Shown here: one piece after another, positions 5,001-28,963 of the stretch
Layout: every line of letters starts with the position of its first letter
How positions within the stretch are numbered: position 1 is the first letter of the stretch
Assembly: GCF_014696315.1 (NCBI RefSeq)
Contig: NZ_JACJPX010000008.1
Coordinates: 62,001 to 126,000 of the forward strand
Reading direction: 5' to 3'
Origin: Calothrix membranacea FACHB-236
GTDB taxonomy: Bacteria; Cyanobacteriota; Cyanobacteriia; Cyanobacteriales; Nostocaceae
Length of the DNA: 64,000 nucleotides
The notes under the pieces: generated by a model
Told to the model about the DNA's origin: nothing
The model's input: the letters and a program-made list of their open reading frames with translations, nothing else
Database searches by the model: none
Made by a program: the position numbers and the translations under genes

Positions 5001-8000
5001 ATTATCTGTCAAATCTTTCCATGTACCCGCCGCCCCAGGTACTCTGGCTTGACCGCCTAATTTTCCTTCGATTCCCACTTCCCGCGCTACTGTGGTTACT
5101 TGATTGGCAAAAGTTGCTAGGGTGTCAATCATTTCGTTGATTGTCTCAGCTAGGGTTTCAATTTCGCCCTTCGCATCTAACATTAATTTGCGTTTCAAGT
5201 CCCCATTCGCCACCGCCGTTACCACTCGGGCGATACCGCGCACCTGGGCTGTTAAATTACCCGCCATTGAGTTGACATTATCGGTCAAATCTTTCCACGT
5301 ACCTGCAACGCCTTGAACTTGCGCTTGACCGCCTAATTTTCCTTCCGTTCCCACTTCTCGCGCCACCCGCGTTACTTCCGAAGCAAAGGAACTGAGTTGA
5401 TCCACCATTGTATTGATAGTGTCTTTCAACTCTAAAATTTCACCACGCACATCCACGGTGATTTTCTTGGATAAATCACCATTCGCCACCGCTTTGGTAA
5501 CTTCCGCGATGTTTCGCACCTGGGCTGTCAGGTTCCCCGCCATTGAGTTGACATTGTCGGTCAAATCTTTCCACGTTCCCGCCACCCCTCGGACGTAAGC
5601 TTGTACCCCCAATTTACCTTCAGTTCCCACCTCCCTTGCTACCCGCGTTACTTCCGAGGCGAAGGAATTTAATTGATCCACCATTGTGTTGATGGTATTT
5701 TTCAACTCCAAAATTTCGCCCTTCACATCCACAGTAATTTTCTTAGAAAGGTCGCCATTCGCCACCGCCGTGGTTACTTCCGCGATATTCCGCACCTGGG
5801 CTGTCAAGCTTCCCGCCATGAAATTCACACTGTCGGTGAGGTCTTTCCAAGTTCCCGCAACTCCCTTAACCTCAGCTTGTACGCCCAATTTACCTTCGGT
5901 TCCCACCTCTCGCGCCACCCGCGTTACTTCCGACGCAAAAGAATTGAGTTGATCCACCATTGTGTTGACAGTGTTTTTCAACTCTAAAATTTCCCCTTTG
6001 ACATCCACAGAAATTTTCTTCGAGAGGTCACCATTCGCCACCGCTGTGGTAACTGCGGCGATGTTCCGCACTTGGGCTGTTAAGCTTCCCGCCATGAAAT
6101 TCACGCTGTCGGTTAAGTCTTTCCAGGTTCCCGCAACACCGCGCACATCGGCTTGTACGCCCAGTTTCCCTTCACTTCCCACCTCTCGCGCTACTCTGGT
6201 TACCTCAGATGCGAAGGAGTTGAGTTGATCCACCATGATATTGATGGTGTTTTTCAACTCCAAAATTTCGCCTTTAACCTGTACAGTAATTTTCTTCGAT
6301 AAGTCACCATTTGCGATCGCAGTTGCAACTTCTGCAATGTTCCGTACTTGGTCGGTGAGGTTCCCCGCCATCATGTTCACCGCACCTGTTAAGTCTTTCC
6401 AGGTTCCCGCGACACCGCGTACTTCCGCTTGTACACCGAGTTTTCCTTCTGTCCCCACTTCTCGCGCTACCCTAGTTACTTCAGAAGCAAAGGAACTGAG
6501 TTGATCCACCATCGTATTGATGGTGTTTTTCAACTCCAAAATTTCGCCCTTCACATCCACGGTAATTTTTTTCGATAAGTCGCCAGTCGCTACCGCTGTT
6601 GTCACTTCCGCAATATTCCGCACCTGGGCTGTCAAACTTCCCGCCATGAAGTTCACGCTGTCGGTGAGGTCTTTCCAGGTTCCCGCCACACCCCGGACAT
6701 CAGCTTGTACGCCCAGTTTCCCTTCACTTCCTACCTCTCGCGCTACCCTGGTTACCTCCGACGCAAAGGAGTTGAGTTGATCCACCATTGTATTGATGGT
6801 GTTTTTCAACTCCAAAATTTCACCCTTCACATCCACAGTGATTTTCTTGGAAAGGTCACCAGTCGCCACCGCCGTTGTCACTTCCGCAATATTCCGCACC
6901 TGGGCTGTCAAGCTTCCCGCCATGAAATTCACGCTGTCAGTGAGGTCTTTCCACGTTCCCGCCACACCGCGCACTTCGGCTTGACCGCCAAGTTTTCCTT
7001 CCGCACCCACTTCTCGCGCCACCCGCGTTACTTCCGATGCAAAGGAGTTTAATTGATCCACCATGATGTTGACGGTATTTTTCAACTCCAAAATTTCACC
7101 CTTAACATCTACAGTGATTTTTTTGGATAAATCGCCATTTGCTACCGCCGTTGTTACTTCCGCAATATTACGTACTTGTGCTGTCAAATTCCCAGCCATC
7201 AAGTTAACGTTATCAGTCAAATCTTTCCATGTTCCCGCCACACCGCGCACTTCCGCTTGTACGCCCAACTTTCCTTCTGTTCCAACCTCCCGCGCTACCC
7301 GCGTTACTTCCGACGCAAAGGAATTGAGTTGATCCACCATCGTGTTGATGGTGTTTTTTAACTCCAAAATCTCACCCTTCACATCCACAGTGATTTTCTT
7401 CGACAGGTCACCATTCGCCACCGCCGTGGTTACTTCTGCAATATTCCGCACTTGGGCTGTCAAACTTCCCGCCATAAAGTTCACGCTGTCGGTGAGGTCT
7501 TTCCACGTACCCGCCACACCGCGCACTTCCGCTTGACCGCCTAATTTACCTTCCGCGCCTACCTCCCGCGCTACCCTGGTAACTTCTGATGCAAAGGAAT
7601 TAAGCTGATCCACCATGATGTTAACGGTGTTTTTCAACTCTAAAATTTCGCCTTTCACGTTTACAGTAATTTTCTTGGAAAGGTCGCCATTGGCTACAGC
7701 CGTTGTTACTTCCGCAATGTTACGTACCTGAGCAGTCAAATTTCCTGCCATCAAGTTGACATTGTCGGTCAAATCTTTCCATGTACCCGCCACACCCCTA
7801 ACTTCAGCTTGTACGCCCAGCTTCCCTTCTGTTCCAACTTCCCGTGCTACCCTGGTAACTTCTGATGCAAAGGAATTAAGCTGATCCACCATCGTGTTAA
7901 CGGTGTTTTTCAACTCCAGAATTTCGCCTTTCACATTTACAGTAATTTTCTTTGATAAGTCACCGTTGGCGATCGCAGTTGCAACTTCCGCAATATTACG

Positions 8001-26298: not shown

Positions 26299-27927
26299 AT
26301 GGCGAAATATGCATTGCTAATTGGCGCTAGTGAGTATGAGTCTCCGAAGATAAATAATTTATCTGGAGTAGTCAAAGATATTGAAGCAATGCAGCGTGTT
26401 TTGGAGAATTTAGAGATAGGCGGCTTTAAAGAAGTCAAAGTTTTGCTTAGTCCTAATTCCGATACCATGCGCTCAGAAATTGAGCAGTTGTTCATGGAAA
26501 AATGTCAAAAAGATGACGTAGTGCTGCTCTATTTTTCTGGACATGGCTACAGACATGAGGACGGAAATCTATTTTTTGTCAGCCGCAATACTCAAATCAA
26601 TCCCCAAGGTTTAGTCAGAATTGGTACAGCAGTAGATGCTAAATTCATCCATCAAAATTACATGAGTCGCAGCAAATCTAAGCGACAAGTGTTAATTCTT
26701 GACTGTTGCTTTAGCGGTGCTTTTGCTGAGGGGATGAGTGCAAAAGAAATTTCCAATCTCAGCATTAAAAATGAAATTGTTGAGCAATTAGGTGGTGAAG
26801 GTAGAGCTGTGTTAACCTCTTCCACAGCGACACAAAAATCTTTTGAAGATTCAGGCGGAGGAGTTTACACACGCTATTTAATTGAGGGAATTGAAACAGG
26901 CGCAGCTGATAATGATAACGATGGTTTTGTTACTGTAGCTGAACTGCATGATTATGCCAAGCGCAAGGTACTGGAATCAAAGCCAGCGATGAAGCCAGAA
27001 ATCTTTGCAGTTCGGGAAGGTTATACAATTCGCCTAGCTAAAGCACCAGTAGGCGATCCACAATTAGAGTATCGTAAAGAAGTTGAGCAACGTGTTAGAA
27101 ATGGTCGCGTTTCGGTTGTGGGACGCAAGGTGTTGATTCGTAGACAAAGCGAGTTGGGGTTAAACTCGGAAGTAGCAGCAGCGATAGAAGAAGAAGTTCT
27201 CAAACCATTCCGTGAGTTAGAAGAAAGCTTGCAGGAATACGAACAAACCCTAACTGAAGCATTAGAAGAAGAACCGATTCTTAGTGATGAAACTCTTGAT
27301 GATTTACGGCGATTACAACAAATTCTTAAACTGCGAGATGAGGATGTTGCAGCTATACATAATCGCTTGATTCCTCAGCAGTCAATTTCGGCAAGTAACA
27401 CTATTTCCCCGCAGCCCATCTCAACAATTGACACCAAACAACCGACAGCTAAAGAAGACGATGACCTCAGTTCAGAAAAAGGCGTAGACTATGCCAAACT
27501 GCGCGACTTGCTAGCAGCAGAGAACTGGAAAGATGCTGATATGGAAACATATAAAGTGATGATTCAGGTTTTAGGTAAGAAGAAATATGACTACTTTTCG
27601 TCTAAAGAATTATTAAACTTCCCTTGTACCGACCTCCGCACGATTGACCGCTTATGGGTAAAATATAGCGATGGGCGCTTTGGCTTCAGCGTTCAAAAGG
27701 AAATTTACTTGAGCGTTGGCGGTAAGCCAGACGGCAAGTATAACAATGAAGCCTGGGAGAAATTTGGCGATCGCGTAGGATGGAGAGTGGAAAGCAACTG
27801 GATTGATTACGATAAAGTTATTTTTGATACCGCAGTTCCTAGAGGACATTTCCCACTTTTTTCTCTATTGCAGATCAGAGACACGCGGCTATTCTCTTCT
27901 CCTCTTCTCTCGCATAGAGACTTGTAA
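26299..27927 (+). CDS. Caspase-family (C14) protease with EF-hand-like loop and C-terminal GUN4 domain
   Basis: A 542-residue cytosolic protein. The caspase/metacaspase domain spans residues 1-235; the catalytic His82 lies in LYFSGHGYRHEDGN and Cys137 in VLILDCCFSGAF. Residues 204-215 (DNDNDGFVTVAE) match a 12-residue EF-hand loop: D at 1, 3 and 5, G at 6, hydrophobic at 8 and E at 12. A helical, acidic linker runs from about 250 to 365, with coiled-coil potential (LEESLQEYEQTLTEALEEE). Residues about 395-525 match GUN4: LRDLLAAENWKDAD, IDRLWVKYSDGRFGFSVQKEIY, FGDRVGWRV. GUN4 domains bind protoporphyrin/Mg-protoporphyrin in known members. Expected cleavage preference (Arg/Lys versus Asp) cannot be read. 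Confidence 0.9.
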   Translation: MAKYALLIGASEYESPKINNLSGVVKDIEAMQRVLENLEIGGFKEVKVLLSPNSDTMRSEIEQLFMEKCQKDDVVLLYFSGHGYRHEDGNLFFVSRNTQINPQGLVRIGTAVDAKFIHQNYMSRSKSKRQVLILDCCFSGAFAEGMSAKEISNLSIKNEIVEQLGGEGRAVLTSSTATQKSFEDSGGGVYTRYLIEGIETGAADNDNDGFVTVAELHDYAKRKVLESKPAMKPEIFAVREGYTIRLAKAPVGDPQLEYRKEVEQRVRNGRVSVVGRKVLIRRQSELGLNSEVAAAIEEEVLKPFRELEESLQEYEQTLTEALEEEPILSDETLDDLRRLQQILKLRDEDVAAIHNRLIPQQSISASNTISPQPISTIDTKQPTAKEDDDLSSEKGVDYAKLRDLLAAENWKDADMETYKVMIQVLGKKKYDYFSSKELLNFPCTDLRTIDRLWVKYSDGRFGFSVQKEIYLSVGGKPDGKYNNEAWEKFGDRVGWRVESNWIDYDKVIFDTAVPRGHFPLFSLLQIRDTRLFSSPLLSHRDL

Positions 27928-27947
27928 AGTGTAACACCTAAGGCTTT

Positions 27948-28010
27948 GAGGGGCACGGCATCCACAGATTTTCGGAGATACATATATCTTATCGGTGCCG
28001 TGCCCCTACG
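27948..28010. repeat. Palindromic element (GGGGCACGGCA arms)
   Basis: Arms GGGGCACGGCA and TGCCGTGCCCC are separated by about 37 bp containing a TATATAT core. It belongs to the same broad GGGGCAnGGCA class as the elements at 12253, 29116, 29256 and 55290. Confidence 0.7.
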
Positions 28011-28130
28011 ATAGATGTGGTTCAAATATGCGAAAACTATTGTAAAGTGCGATCGCCCCAGCTTTAACGAAATGCGTAGGCGTAGCACTCCTTTGGTATC
28101 GCTAACAAACTTTAATCATCAAAGTTACAA

Positions 28131-28313
28131 CATTAAGGCTTAAACCTTGACCATTAAGACTTAAACCTCGACCATTAAGACTTAAACCTTGACCATTAAG
28201 GCTTAAACCTCGACCATTAAGGCTTAAACCTTGACCATTAAGACTTAAACCTTGACCATTAAGACTTAAACCTTGACCATTAAGACTTAAACCTCGACCA
28301 TTAAGGCTTAAAG
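28131..28313. repeat. Nine 21-bp iterons each holding a TTAAGnCTTAA palindrome
   Basis: Eight complete 21-bp units and a partial ninth start at 28131, 28152, 28173, 28194, 28215, 28236, 28257, 28278 and 28299. Each contains the palindrome TTAAG-A/G-CTTAA followed by AACC-T/C-TGACCA or the TCGACCA variant. Variation is limited to A/G at the palindrome centre and TTGACC versus TCGACC. All three + frames are stopped in every unit. One frame on the - strand stays open and reads (Q/R)GLSLNG, but has no ATG. Confidence 0.95.
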
Positions 28314-28567
28314 TGAAAGCGATCGCACTTAACCCTACATGAAAGTGCAGAGGTTGAGCCTGTGGTAGGCATCACCTACGCAGTCATAATCGCATATTGC
28401 TGAAACTTAAACACATTATTTCTCTGAAAATCAGCCCTGAGTGATGAAATTCAGAAAAATCACTGGTATAAAACAAAAATTCTGTGAAAAAACTGCGATT
28501 TTTGCTGAACCGGAATATAGCTTAATTGAGCCAAACTAGCTTTTGAGAGCTAGTGAAGGAGTAGAAT
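28314..28567. other. Intergenic, between iterons and the 131-aa gene
   Basis: One HIP1 site lies at about 28319-28326. The promoter of the downstream gene should lie here, but no clear -35/-10 pair stands out. AAGGAG sits before the ATG. Confidence 0.4.
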
Positions 28568-28963
28568 ATGGCTCGTAAGCAACGTACATCCCGGATTCTA
28601 GAAAAAGCTCAGTTCAGAGTCACCAGGATGAAAGCTATTGATCCAAATATAACTTTTGATGATAACTGCAACTTGCAAAACCTAACTCAATTAATCCAGC
28701 AATTTCAAACGATGCTGAATGAATATAACGATGCTATGGCTGTAATTGACTCTTCTAGAACAAAGCTAGACGAGCTGGAAAAAAGCTTAAGCCTGATTTC
28801 AGATAAAATGCTGGCGGGGGTTGGTTTCAAATACGGCAAAGACAGCAGTGAATATGAGCTTGCAGGTGGGGTTAAAGAAAGCGATCGCATTCGCAAAAGC
28901 AGATTAACCCGCTTAAAGAATAGTGCAGAAAAAAACGCAAATGATAATGTAGTAACTGCCTAA
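28568..28963 (+). CDS. Unknown coiled-coil protein with strong ribosome binding site
   Basis: A 131-residue protein. AAGGAG six bases before the ATG supports translation. The N-terminus is basic (MARKQRTSRILEKAQFRVTRM). The middle (about 40-80) is a heptad-like helix, and a GFKYGKDSSEYELAGGVKESDR segment follows. The tail is basic and asparagine-rich. I recognise no named family. Small proteins ending in an AGGV-K-SDR-type motif do occur in cyanobacteria and other phyla, often near mobile DNA; this is a recollection, not a search result. It stands alone, 255 bp after the 21-bp iterons. Confidence 0.75.
   Translation: MARKQRTSRILEKAQFRVTRMKAIDPNITFDDNCNLQNLTQLIQQFQTMLNEYNDAMAVIDSSRTKLDELEKSLSLISDKMLAGVGFKYGKDSSEYELAGGVKESDRIRKSRLTRLKNSAEKNANDNVVTA

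What the first reader, a model, noticed from the sequence alone, without database searches (positions are those of the whole stretch)
26299..27927. Caspase domain joined to an EF-hand-like loop and a GUN4 tetrapyrrole-binding domain
The His82/Cys137 caspase dyad, a 12-residue D-x-D-x-DG-x-hydrophobic-E loop (204-215) and a full-length GUN4 domain are in one reading frame. Known GUN4 proteins bind protoporphyrin IX and Mg-protoporphyrin and regulate Mg-chelatase; known metacaspases are calcium dependent. The fusion suggests a protease whose activity is set by calcium and by tetrapyrrole status (light or oxygen stress), possibly a cell-death or proteolytic switch in a filament. Domains are read from sequence; the sensor role is inference.
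Basis: partly seen in the sequence, partly recalled or inferred. Interest (0 to 1): 0.75.

Follow-up and report, generated by a model that had tools for sequence, protein, structure and literature searches.

The report
Caspase–GUN4 gene with rewritable tail

Summary
In detail: 26299-27927 encodes a caspase (H82/C137), an EF-hand-like loop and a GUN4 domain. The fusion and the tetrapyrrole-sensor idea are already in print. The unexpected part is the 3' end. After the GUN4 motif GHxP comes a stretch (median 66 nt, range 31-205) that is unrelated even between syntenic loci of 92-94% DNA identity. It stops at a conserved DNA element, TCTTCTCTCGCRTCGAGACTTGTAAANTGTAACATNTAAG, which is used in all three frames and holds TAA in each. 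Of 187 sites, 171 follow a GUN4 domain. The stretch is open in the used frame in 154 of 160 cases against 62 and 64 in the other frames, and is G/T-rich at every codon position. It replaces the LxNxLR bilin-contact motif: 26 of 26 canonical, 0 of 128 element-bearing. Carriers are kinases, TIR proteins, caspases and NACHT proteins. In congeners, canonical GUN4 and an element-less caspase–GUN4 keep their tails. I read this as targeted diversification of a sensor, unlike a diversity-generating retroelement. Enzyme, ligand and protease trigger are inferred.

The parts
26299..27927 (+). caspase–helical middle–GUN4 gene, 542 aa
26305..26994 (+). caspase (Peptidase_C14, EACC1-type) domain, residues 3-232
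26542..26544 (+). catalytic His82 codon
26707..26709 (+). catalytic Cys137 codon
   Evidence: role by family knowledge
26908..26943 (+). EF-hand-like loop DNDNDGFVTVAE, a feature of the caspase module in general (27 of 30)
27058..27369 (+). helical middle domain, residues 254-357, shared with relatives that carry other C-terminal domains
27472..27855 (+). conserved body of the GUN4 domain, from residue 392 to GHFP (516-519)
27856..27902 (+). hypervariable tail-coding stretch (encodes LFSLLQIRDTRLFSSP), replaced in syntenic congeners
27903..27942 (+). conserved DNA element TCTTCTCTCGCATAGAGACTTGTAAAGTGTAACACCTAAG, partly coding (LLSHRDL), partly 3' of the stop
27925..27927 (+). TAA of the frame in use
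27932..27934 (+). TAA of the second frame
27939..27941 (+). TAA of the third frame

Best explanation
The gene encodes a death- or cleavage-type effector (caspase) joined to a GUN4 domain that serves as a scaffold for a diversified ligand-contact tail. At the DNA level the stretch between the GHxP codons and a conserved element is from time to time replaced by newly made sequence of arbitrary length and frame, biased to G and T on the coding strand. The element marks the site and, with TAA in all three frames, ends translation a few codons later whatever the length of the new piece; variants with an internal stop are removed by selection. The result is a family of kinase, TIR, caspase and NACHT effectors with the same GUN4 body and private C-terminal tails at the place where canonical GUN4 holds bilin. 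I expect ligand binding by body plus tail to switch the caspase. SHOWN here: the replacement at this locus, the element and its three stops, use of three frames, selection for an open frame, the G/T bias, the loss of LxNxLR, the effector partners. INFERRED: a dedicated enzyme that cuts or primes at the element and a low-fidelity or template-free polymerase; that the tail binds something; that binding controls the protease.
For: (1) Same locus, congeners: syntenic DNA is 94.0-94.5% (L386, G390) and 91.7-92.2% (L389, G359) identical, about 89% for L387 (G389), but the tails are unrelated: own LFSLLQIRDTRLFSSP..., G390 RKSHIQVALLIPQEP..., G359 SLDAFLAGLVFSWSS..., G389 ILCRRSFVAIFGNVSWSFVVLF...; the 50-nt bin over the tail is 20% identical to L389 while the next bins are 88, 90 and 96%. 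Frames differ too (own ends LLSHRDL, G390 SRIETCKV). (2) Control in the same four congeners: the canonical GUN4 tail and the tail of the element-less caspase-GUN4 L003 are kept. (3) Element: 5 sites in the own genome, all 5 beside a GUN4 match; 90 of 388 genomes of the order at up to 1 mismatch, reversed control 0; 84 exact stretches in 84,980 species genomes, all with cyanobacterial titles; none in viral contigs. Of 187 distinct sites held, 171 have GUN4 upstream; 5 of the 16 others lie at a contig edge. (4) Positions outside the search pattern are also conserved: TCTTC before it (.98/.84/.99/.97/.94) and the third TAA (.96/.96/.94); substitutions are not concentrated at third codon positions in any phase (124 sites). 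(5) Phases 65/60/35; open in the GUN4 frame 154 of 160, other frames 62 and 64; 7 stops in 3792 codons against 164 in 3727 and 201 in 3692. (6) G .36-.39 and T .31-.35 at all three codon positions; 128 of 160 tails have G+T of 0.6 or more, 20 of 160 GUN4-body windows do. (7) Pairs with GUN4 DNA identity 0.90-0.95 (n=46): median tail identity 0.53, last 63 nt of the body 0.90. (8) LxNxLR 26 of 26 canonical, 0 of 128 element-bearing. (9) Of 140 element-bearing ORFs 71 match Pkinase, 19 TIR_2, 14 Peptidase_C14, 4 NACHT.
Against: No enzyme has been found. The own tail is not G/T-rich (read), so the bias is a tendency. Tails are often inherited: 5 of 53 pairs with GUN4 identity of 0.90 or more have tail identity of 0.8 or more, and the own short GUN4 gene L006 keeps its tail in G359, so the rate is modest and no variation within one population was seen. 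In our gene the last 330 nt of the GUN4 body are themselves more diverged (86-89%) than the surrounding locus, which fits recombination with a relative as well. Eleven sites that are not at a contig edge lack a detectable GUN4, among them an antitoxin-like gene that ends directly in the element in L123, L131 and L132. Tail hydrophobicity is not above that of the unused frames (GRAVY .43 against .63 and .48), so nothing shows selection on what the tail says beyond being open. Binding, expression and protease activity are untested.
Confidence: 0.6

Rival explanations
1. Cassette exchange: tails are not made anew but moved by homologous recombination or gene conversion between GUN4 genes, using the GUN4 body and the element with its 3' flank as arms. 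Diversity comes from the pan-genome.
For: Body and element are conserved arms; the GUN4 body of our gene is more diverged than its surroundings; in several pairs the tail is shared while the 3' flank differs (L134/L128, L180/L175), so junctions near the element do occur; GUN4 genes also lie on plasmids.
Against: Among 179 tails (15,931 pairs) the pairs that share a tail clearly above the shuffled null are 7 pairs plus one duplication inside L159, and in all of them the GUN4 bodies are 90% or more identical, i.e. common descent; no tail was found on a distant body (four further pairs score 18-20, the level of the null). One of five own tails was searched in the own genome and had no second copy. 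A frame-independent G/T bias is not expected from exchange alone.
Confidence: 0.2
2. A diversity-generating retroelement (DGR), or a relic of one: the tail is a variable repeat and the element its homing site, served in trans by a DGR reverse transcriptase.
For: DGRs diversify C-terminal sensor domains of the same kinds of effectors in multicellular bacteria, with conserved cis sites near the 3' end of the target (PMC7517822 section 6; PMC10907252 passages). Several element-bearing genomes have reverse transcriptases.
Against: DGRs substitute at template adenines and keep length and frame (PMC10907252 passages); here length and frame change. Of 12 element-bearing genomes searched for RVT_1, G129 has no match, G336 only a match below the cut-off and the own genome a single partial match that I did not classify. 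The published cyanobacterial targets are C-type lectin modules. I did not search for a template repeat.
Confidence: 0.07
3. No mechanism: once the bilin contact was lost the tail became free to drift, and the element is an ordinary conserved gene end or the end of a mobile repeat.
For: Rapid change at a terminus is common; an element-like end also occurs on an antitoxin-like gene without a variable stretch.
Against: Wholesale replacement between 92-94% identical syntenic loci; the frame is kept open (154 of 160 against 62 and 64); about 40 nt of DNA conserved across families in three reading frames; an element-less caspase-GUN4 paralog in the same genomes keeps its tail.
Confidence: 0.08
4. 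One reading: a calcium- and tetrapyrrole-gated protease, with the tail of no importance.
For: Caspase dyad, EF-hand-like loop and GUN4 fold are present; porphyrin binding may survive loss of the Asn.
Against: The bilin-contact segment is the very part that is replaced; the loop is common to the module; MaOC1 is reported calcium-independent.
Confidence: 0.15

Closest known systems
Cyanobacterial orthocaspases with a GUN4 domain (Jiang 2010 PMC2853523; PMC3501461; PMC8283722: 29 of 473 orthocaspases)
   Same: Same architecture; this protein is a member.
   Different: Those papers, in the passages seen, do not mention a variable tail or a 3' DNA element.
GUN4 as tetrapyrrole sensor in conflict systems (Kaur 2020 PMC7159879; 2021 PMC8195603)
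   Same: GUN4 fused to kinases, caspases, trypsin and TIR as a regulatory domain in cyanobacteria.
   Different: The ligand-contact end is hypervariable here; the passages seen treat GUN4 as a fixed sensor.
Diversity-generating retroelements acting on C-type lectin sensors of multicellular bacteria (PMC10907252, PMC7517822)
   Same: Works like: targeted hypervariation of a C-terminal sensor attached to kinase, TIR, caspase and NACHT effectors, with conserved DNA near the gene's 3' end.
   Different: Length and reading frame vary, no lectin fold, a three-frame stop element, and no dependence on a reverse transcriptase detectable in all carriers.
GUN4 paralogs without the LxNxLR motif (Rockwell and Lagarias 2023, PMC10156173)
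   Same: They report that the paralogs lack the bilin motif.
   Different: They read it as loss of bilin binding (section 7 and passages); here the segment is shown to be repeatedly replaced next to a conserved element.
EACC1- and EACC2-type caspase systems with variable C-terminal domains
   Same: Constant caspase module with a variable C-terminal domain; our caspase matches the NCBIfam EACC1-associated model.
   Different: No EACC1 partner gene was identified beside it.
TAACTGA heptamer repeats (PMC4679880)
   Same: Stops in all three frames from TAA at 7-nt spacing, in some cyanobacteria (passages).
   Different: Those are tandem repeats, mostly near start codons, with no variable coding stretch.

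Membership tests
Caspase / orthocaspase (Peptidase C14, EACC1-associated type) | match to the family models | tested here: met
Caspase / orthocaspase (Peptidase C14, EACC1-associated type) | His-Cys dyad in SGHG and DCCFSG | tested here: met
Caspase / orthocaspase (Peptidase C14, EACC1-associated type) | proteolysis after Arg/Lys | not testable with these tools
   needs purified protein
EACC1 two-gene conflict system | 5' partner gene coding EACC1 | tested here: inconclusive
   one search lists no same-strand ORF of 80 aa or more between 25865 and 26299; shorter ORFs and the EACC1 model itself were not examined
Canonical GUN4 (Mg-chelatase cofactor) | GUN4 fold | tested here: met
Canonical GUN4 (Mg-chelatase cofactor) | LxNxLR bilin-contact motif after GHLP | tested here: not met
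   motif from PMC10156173 section 7
Canonical GUN4 (Mg-chelatase cofactor) | porphyrin binding | not testable with these tools
   -
Diversity-generating retroelement target | variation at template adenines with length and frame kept | tested here: not met
   three phases and lengths of 31-205 nt; syntenic tails of different length and frame
Diversity-generating retroelement target | reverse transcriptase in the genome | tested here: inconclusive
   of 12 element-bearing genomes, 10 have a match over the cut-off, including one unclassified partial match in the own genome; G336 has only a match below the cut-off and G129 none
Diversity-generating retroelement target | template repeat | not tested
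   -
Diversity-generating retroelement target | variable region in a C-type lectin fold | tested here: not met
   GUN4 fold; no lectin or FGE family in the lists (25 of 31 families shown)
EF-hand protein | Pfam EF-hand match over the cut-off | tested here: not met
   E 0.1, 12.6 bits against 25.4; a 12-residue loop of the right pattern is there

The most novel reading that the evidence does not exclude
Filamentous and colonial cyanobacteria run a dedicated diversification system without DGR-type templated substitution: a nuclease or recombinase acts at the TCTCGCRTCGAGACTTG element behind GUN4, a G/T-preferring polymerase writes a fresh random tail in the manner of V(D)J junctional addition, the three-frame TAA cassette makes every outcome translatable, and selection keeps tails that let GUN4-kinase, -TIR, -caspase and -NACHT effectors recognise new ligands. 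It would be a bacterial repertoire of de novo sensors for immunity or self-recognition.
Probability: 0.4. Interest if true: 0.97.

Novelty: categorically new. Interest (0 to 1): 0.85.

Why it matters
Domain-fused caspases, kinases and TIR proteins of cyanobacteria are thought to be immune or cell-death effectors, but what they sense is unknown. If their GUN4 part carries a rewritable contact surface, it offers a concrete place to look for the signal and a second route, besides diversity-generating retroelements, by which bacteria generate sensor diversity. A DNA element that keeps a stop in every frame behind a stretch of free length would be a simple solution to writing random coding sequence, of interest for evolution of new protein ends and for directed evolution. 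It also changes how GUN4 paralogs are read: not as GUN4 proteins that merely lost bilin binding, but as a scaffold whose ligand end is exchanged.

Tried and rejected
Calcium gating as a special feature: rejected as special, because the loop is in 27 of 30 proteins of the caspase module. A conserved C-terminal peptide motif (R-[LI]-x-x-C-x-hydrophobic), my own first reading of the tails, was rejected when the DNA showed one element read in different frames. Templating from the own 5' flank: exact matches of 12 nt or more in 3 of 124 tails, none in the control against another locus (maximum 10), so at most a minor source. Donor copy in the own genome: one of five own tails searched, no second copy; the next matches had E 0.99 and 6.4. 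Capture from phage: 24-mers of two own tails, no exact match in viral contigs. A known RNA family at the 3' end: no Rfam match at gathering score in 7 loci. A mutation gradient running away from the tail: none clear in 78 pairs. A conserved neighbour gene: none found by reading ORF lists of L082, L101, L140, L146, L156 and L167; XisH/XisI-like genes lie between tandem kinase-GUN4 genes in two loci (the label is my recall, not a model match). The helical middle domain alone folded poorly without an alignment (pLDDT 63) and was not searched further. The search of viral structures returned caspases only among its significant matches (five at E of 0.001 or less, one of them unnamed), of no use here.

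Papers: searches in the open-access library found no report of a variable GUN4 tail or of this element. I saw passages only of PMC2853523, PMC7475262, PMC7159879, PMC8195603, PMC3501461, PMC8283722, PMC10811720, PMC10907252, PMC4679880 and PMC8967248; outline, passages and section 6 of PMC7517822; outline, section 7 and passages of PMC10156173; the start of the abstract of PMC3610870 in a listing. No paper was read whole.

Full report
WHAT WAS CLAIMED AND CHECKED. The ORF 26299-27927 (+) is a 542-aa protein with a Peptidase_C14 domain and a GUN4 domain, both far above cut-off, and a match to the EACC1-associated caspase model. Phmmer against PDB sequences finds GUN4 of Thermosynechococcus, Chlamydomonas, Synechocystis and Arabidopsis. 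The window lies in an unnamed 8.8-Mb genome of 164 contigs.

THE FUSION IS KNOWN. GUN4-bearing caspases were listed in 2010 (PMC2853523, passages), in 2012 (three of them, PMC3501461), and in 2021 as 29 of 473 cyanobacterial orthocaspases (PMC8283722). Kaur et al. 2020 wrote that GUN4 may make kinases, caspases, trypsins and TIR proteins respond to tetrapyrrole level (PMC7159879). In our genome 13 GUN4 and 21 caspase matches are found, five of them in one and the same ORF; two of those five have lost the catalytic Cys (L003, L005).

A MODULE WITH INTERCHANGEABLE ENDS. Of 291 genomes of the order, 123 match the protein at E 1e-40 or better. The best full-length matches carry GUN4, but most matches stop near residue 360, and the proteins then continue with something else (30 read; I recognised lectin/FGE-like, periplasmic-binding, TPR and transmembrane ends by eye, not by model). 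The EF-hand-like loop is in 27 of these 30. So caspase plus helical middle is a constant module, and GUN4 one of several ends.

THE 3' END. Tails of GUN4 effectors seemed to share short C-terminal motifs of three kinds: SRxETCKV, LASRLVNCNI and LLSRRDL. The DNA showed why: one element, TCTTCTCTCGCRTCGAGACTTGTAAANTGTAACATNTAAG, read in the three frames, with TAA at 7-nt spacing so that each frame ends. In the window it is 27903-27942. The core pattern has no chance match in shuffled windows. In the own genome it occurs five times at up to 3 mismatches, each beside a GUN4 match. In the order, 90 of 388 genomes have it at up to 1 mismatch, and the reversed control never occurs; in a phylum sample 42 of 292 at up to 3 mismatches, including four genomes of other orders of the class (G432, G442, G510, G543) and none of the genomes marked same phylum only. 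An exact scan of 84,980 species genomes gave 84 stretches, all with cyanobacterial titles; viral contigs gave none.

STATISTICS. In all loci then held there were 187 distinct sites at up to 5 mismatches; 171 had GUN4 within 1200 nt upstream, 16 had not, 5 of these at contig edges. For 160 the GHxP motif was found and the stretch to the element was 210 nt or shorter: median 66, range 31-205 (these lengths include the TCTTC before the core pattern). Lengths modulo 3 are 0, 2 and 1 in 65, 60 and 35 cases. The stretch is open in the GUN4 frame in 154 of 160; the same DNA is open in 62 and 64 in the other frames. Stops per codons are 7/3792, 164/3727 and 201/3692. With 124 sites, base shuffling predicts 46 open on average (maximum 61 in 200 rounds), observed 121. 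Composition is about G .38, T .33, A .19, C .11 at every codon position, whereas the GUN4 body has A .29-.38. G+T is 0.6 or more in 128 of 160 tails, 20 of 160 body windows and 16 downstream windows; runs of five G occur in 51 tails, of five C in 1. The core of the element was used for selection, but TCTTC before it and the third TAA were not, and they are conserved at .84-.99 and .94-.96. Mismatches in the element fall on codon positions 1/2/3 as 8/16/18, 7/6/11 and 22/20/11 in the three phases, not as protein-coding constraint would have it. The Leu of GHLP is CTC in 81 of 124 cases against 11% of Leu codons in the body, so the left border may be DNA-constrained as well.

REPLACEMENT, NOT DRIFT. 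Pairs of loci with GUN4 DNA identity of 0.95 or more (n=7), 0.90-0.95 (n=46) and 0.85-0.90 (n=102) have median tail identities of 0.64, 0.53 and 0.47, while the 63 nt just before GHxP (less its last 12) have 0.98, 0.90 and 0.84 (the first group includes a duplication within L159). Five of the first 53 pairs keep similar tails. The best case is our own locus. G392 has the G389 tail on a copy at another place. In the same congeners the canonical GUN4 and the element-less caspase-GUN4 L003 keep their tails, with bodies 92-96% identical, while the own short element-bearing GUN4 L006 keeps its tail in G359. A caution: the GUN4 body of our gene is 86-89% identical to G390 and G359 over its last 330 nt, less than the locus as a whole. 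Among 179 tails, only close relatives share one, so shuffling among the sampled genes was not seen.

WHAT IS REPLACED. In canonical GUN4 the residues after GHLP are LxNxLR, which contact bilin; Asn211 is needed for bilin but not porphyrin binding in the Chlamydomonas protein, and GUN4 paralogs lack the motif (PMC10156173 section 7). Here 26 of 26 canonical sequences (of 29 loci examined) have it and 0 of 128 element-bearing proteins (of 140) have it at its place or anywhere in the tail, while P208 is kept in 100% and H206 in 93%. Canonical GUN4 is single-copy in 29 of 29 relatives and aligned to its last or next-to-last residue. The element-bearing proteins are of effector kinds: of 140 ORFs, 139 match GUN4, 71 Pkinase, 19 TIR_2, 14 Peptidase_C14, 4 NACHT, 1 KAP, 1 CHAT.

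HOW IT MAY WORK. Shown: site, replacement, frames, stops, bias, partners. Inferred: an enzyme that opens DNA at the element and a polymerase that adds G/T-rich sequence on the coding strand, or equivalently A/C-rich sequence on the other. A retroelement of the DGR type does not fit: it keeps length and frame and changes only template adenines (PMC10907252 passages), and one of 12 element-bearing genomes searched has no RVT_1 match and another only a match below the cut-off. Exchange of ready-made cassettes remains the strongest rival. That the tail is a contact surface follows from its place in the fold and from the analogy to DGR-diversified sensors on the same effectors; it is not shown, and hydrophobicity of the tails is no higher than in the unused frames.

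VERDICT. The reported fusion is an ordinary, known architecture. The gene is interesting for another reason: it is one of a large family of cyanobacterial effectors with a rewritable GUN4 tail and a three-frame stop element, which the papers found with these searches do not describe.

Noticed in passing
window 27950-28006: Imperfect-centred inverted repeat GGGGCACGGCA...TGCCGTGCCCC just 3' of the element; in the syntenic locus of G390 (L356) the middle part is in the opposite orientation, as if flipped or re-inserted.
   Followed up: partly
window 28130-28320: Tandem array of about 20-nt units (ACCATTAAGACTTAAACCTTG and variants) between the caspase-GUN4 gene and the next gene.
   Followed up: no
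window 28568-28963; L101:3817-4242: Small coiled-coil-like protein (MARKQR.../MARQKR...) of the same kind follows both our gene and the NACHT-GUN4 gene of contig C57; no Pfam match over the cut-off for the window copy.
   Followed up: partly
L123, L131, L132: In three genomes an antitoxin-like gene (label by eye) ends directly in the 30-nt element without a variable stretch, the element being sharply bounded.
   Followed up: partly
L116:1014-1520: Caspase plus middle domain running straight into a short G/T-rich stretch and the element, GUN4 missing, as if deleted.
   Followed up: partly
L159 (G298): Two exact copies of the element 51 bp apart behind one GUN4 gene; the contig length equals the 5,462,271 nt given for Nodularia spumigena CCY9414.
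   Followed up: partly
L146:2884-3623; L082:2606-3348: XisI/XisH-like gene pair (label recalled) between tandem kinase-GUN4 genes in two genomes.
   Followed up: no
L390 (NZ_CP060823.1, Cylindrospermopsis curvispora plasmid): Several GUN4 genes next to psbA; two with N-terminal hydrophobic segments have different tails in different frames before a diverged element.
   Followed up: partly
own genome C90 and C2 (L003, L005): Two caspase-GUN4 proteins have lost the catalytic Cys (LDAN, LDAS), so they are pseudo-caspases.
   Followed up: no
L156 (about 7310-7340, minus strand), L178, L200, L219, L244, L290: Element, mostly with a G/T-rich stretch, without a recognisable GUN4 upstream: relics or possible reservoirs.
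   Followed up: no
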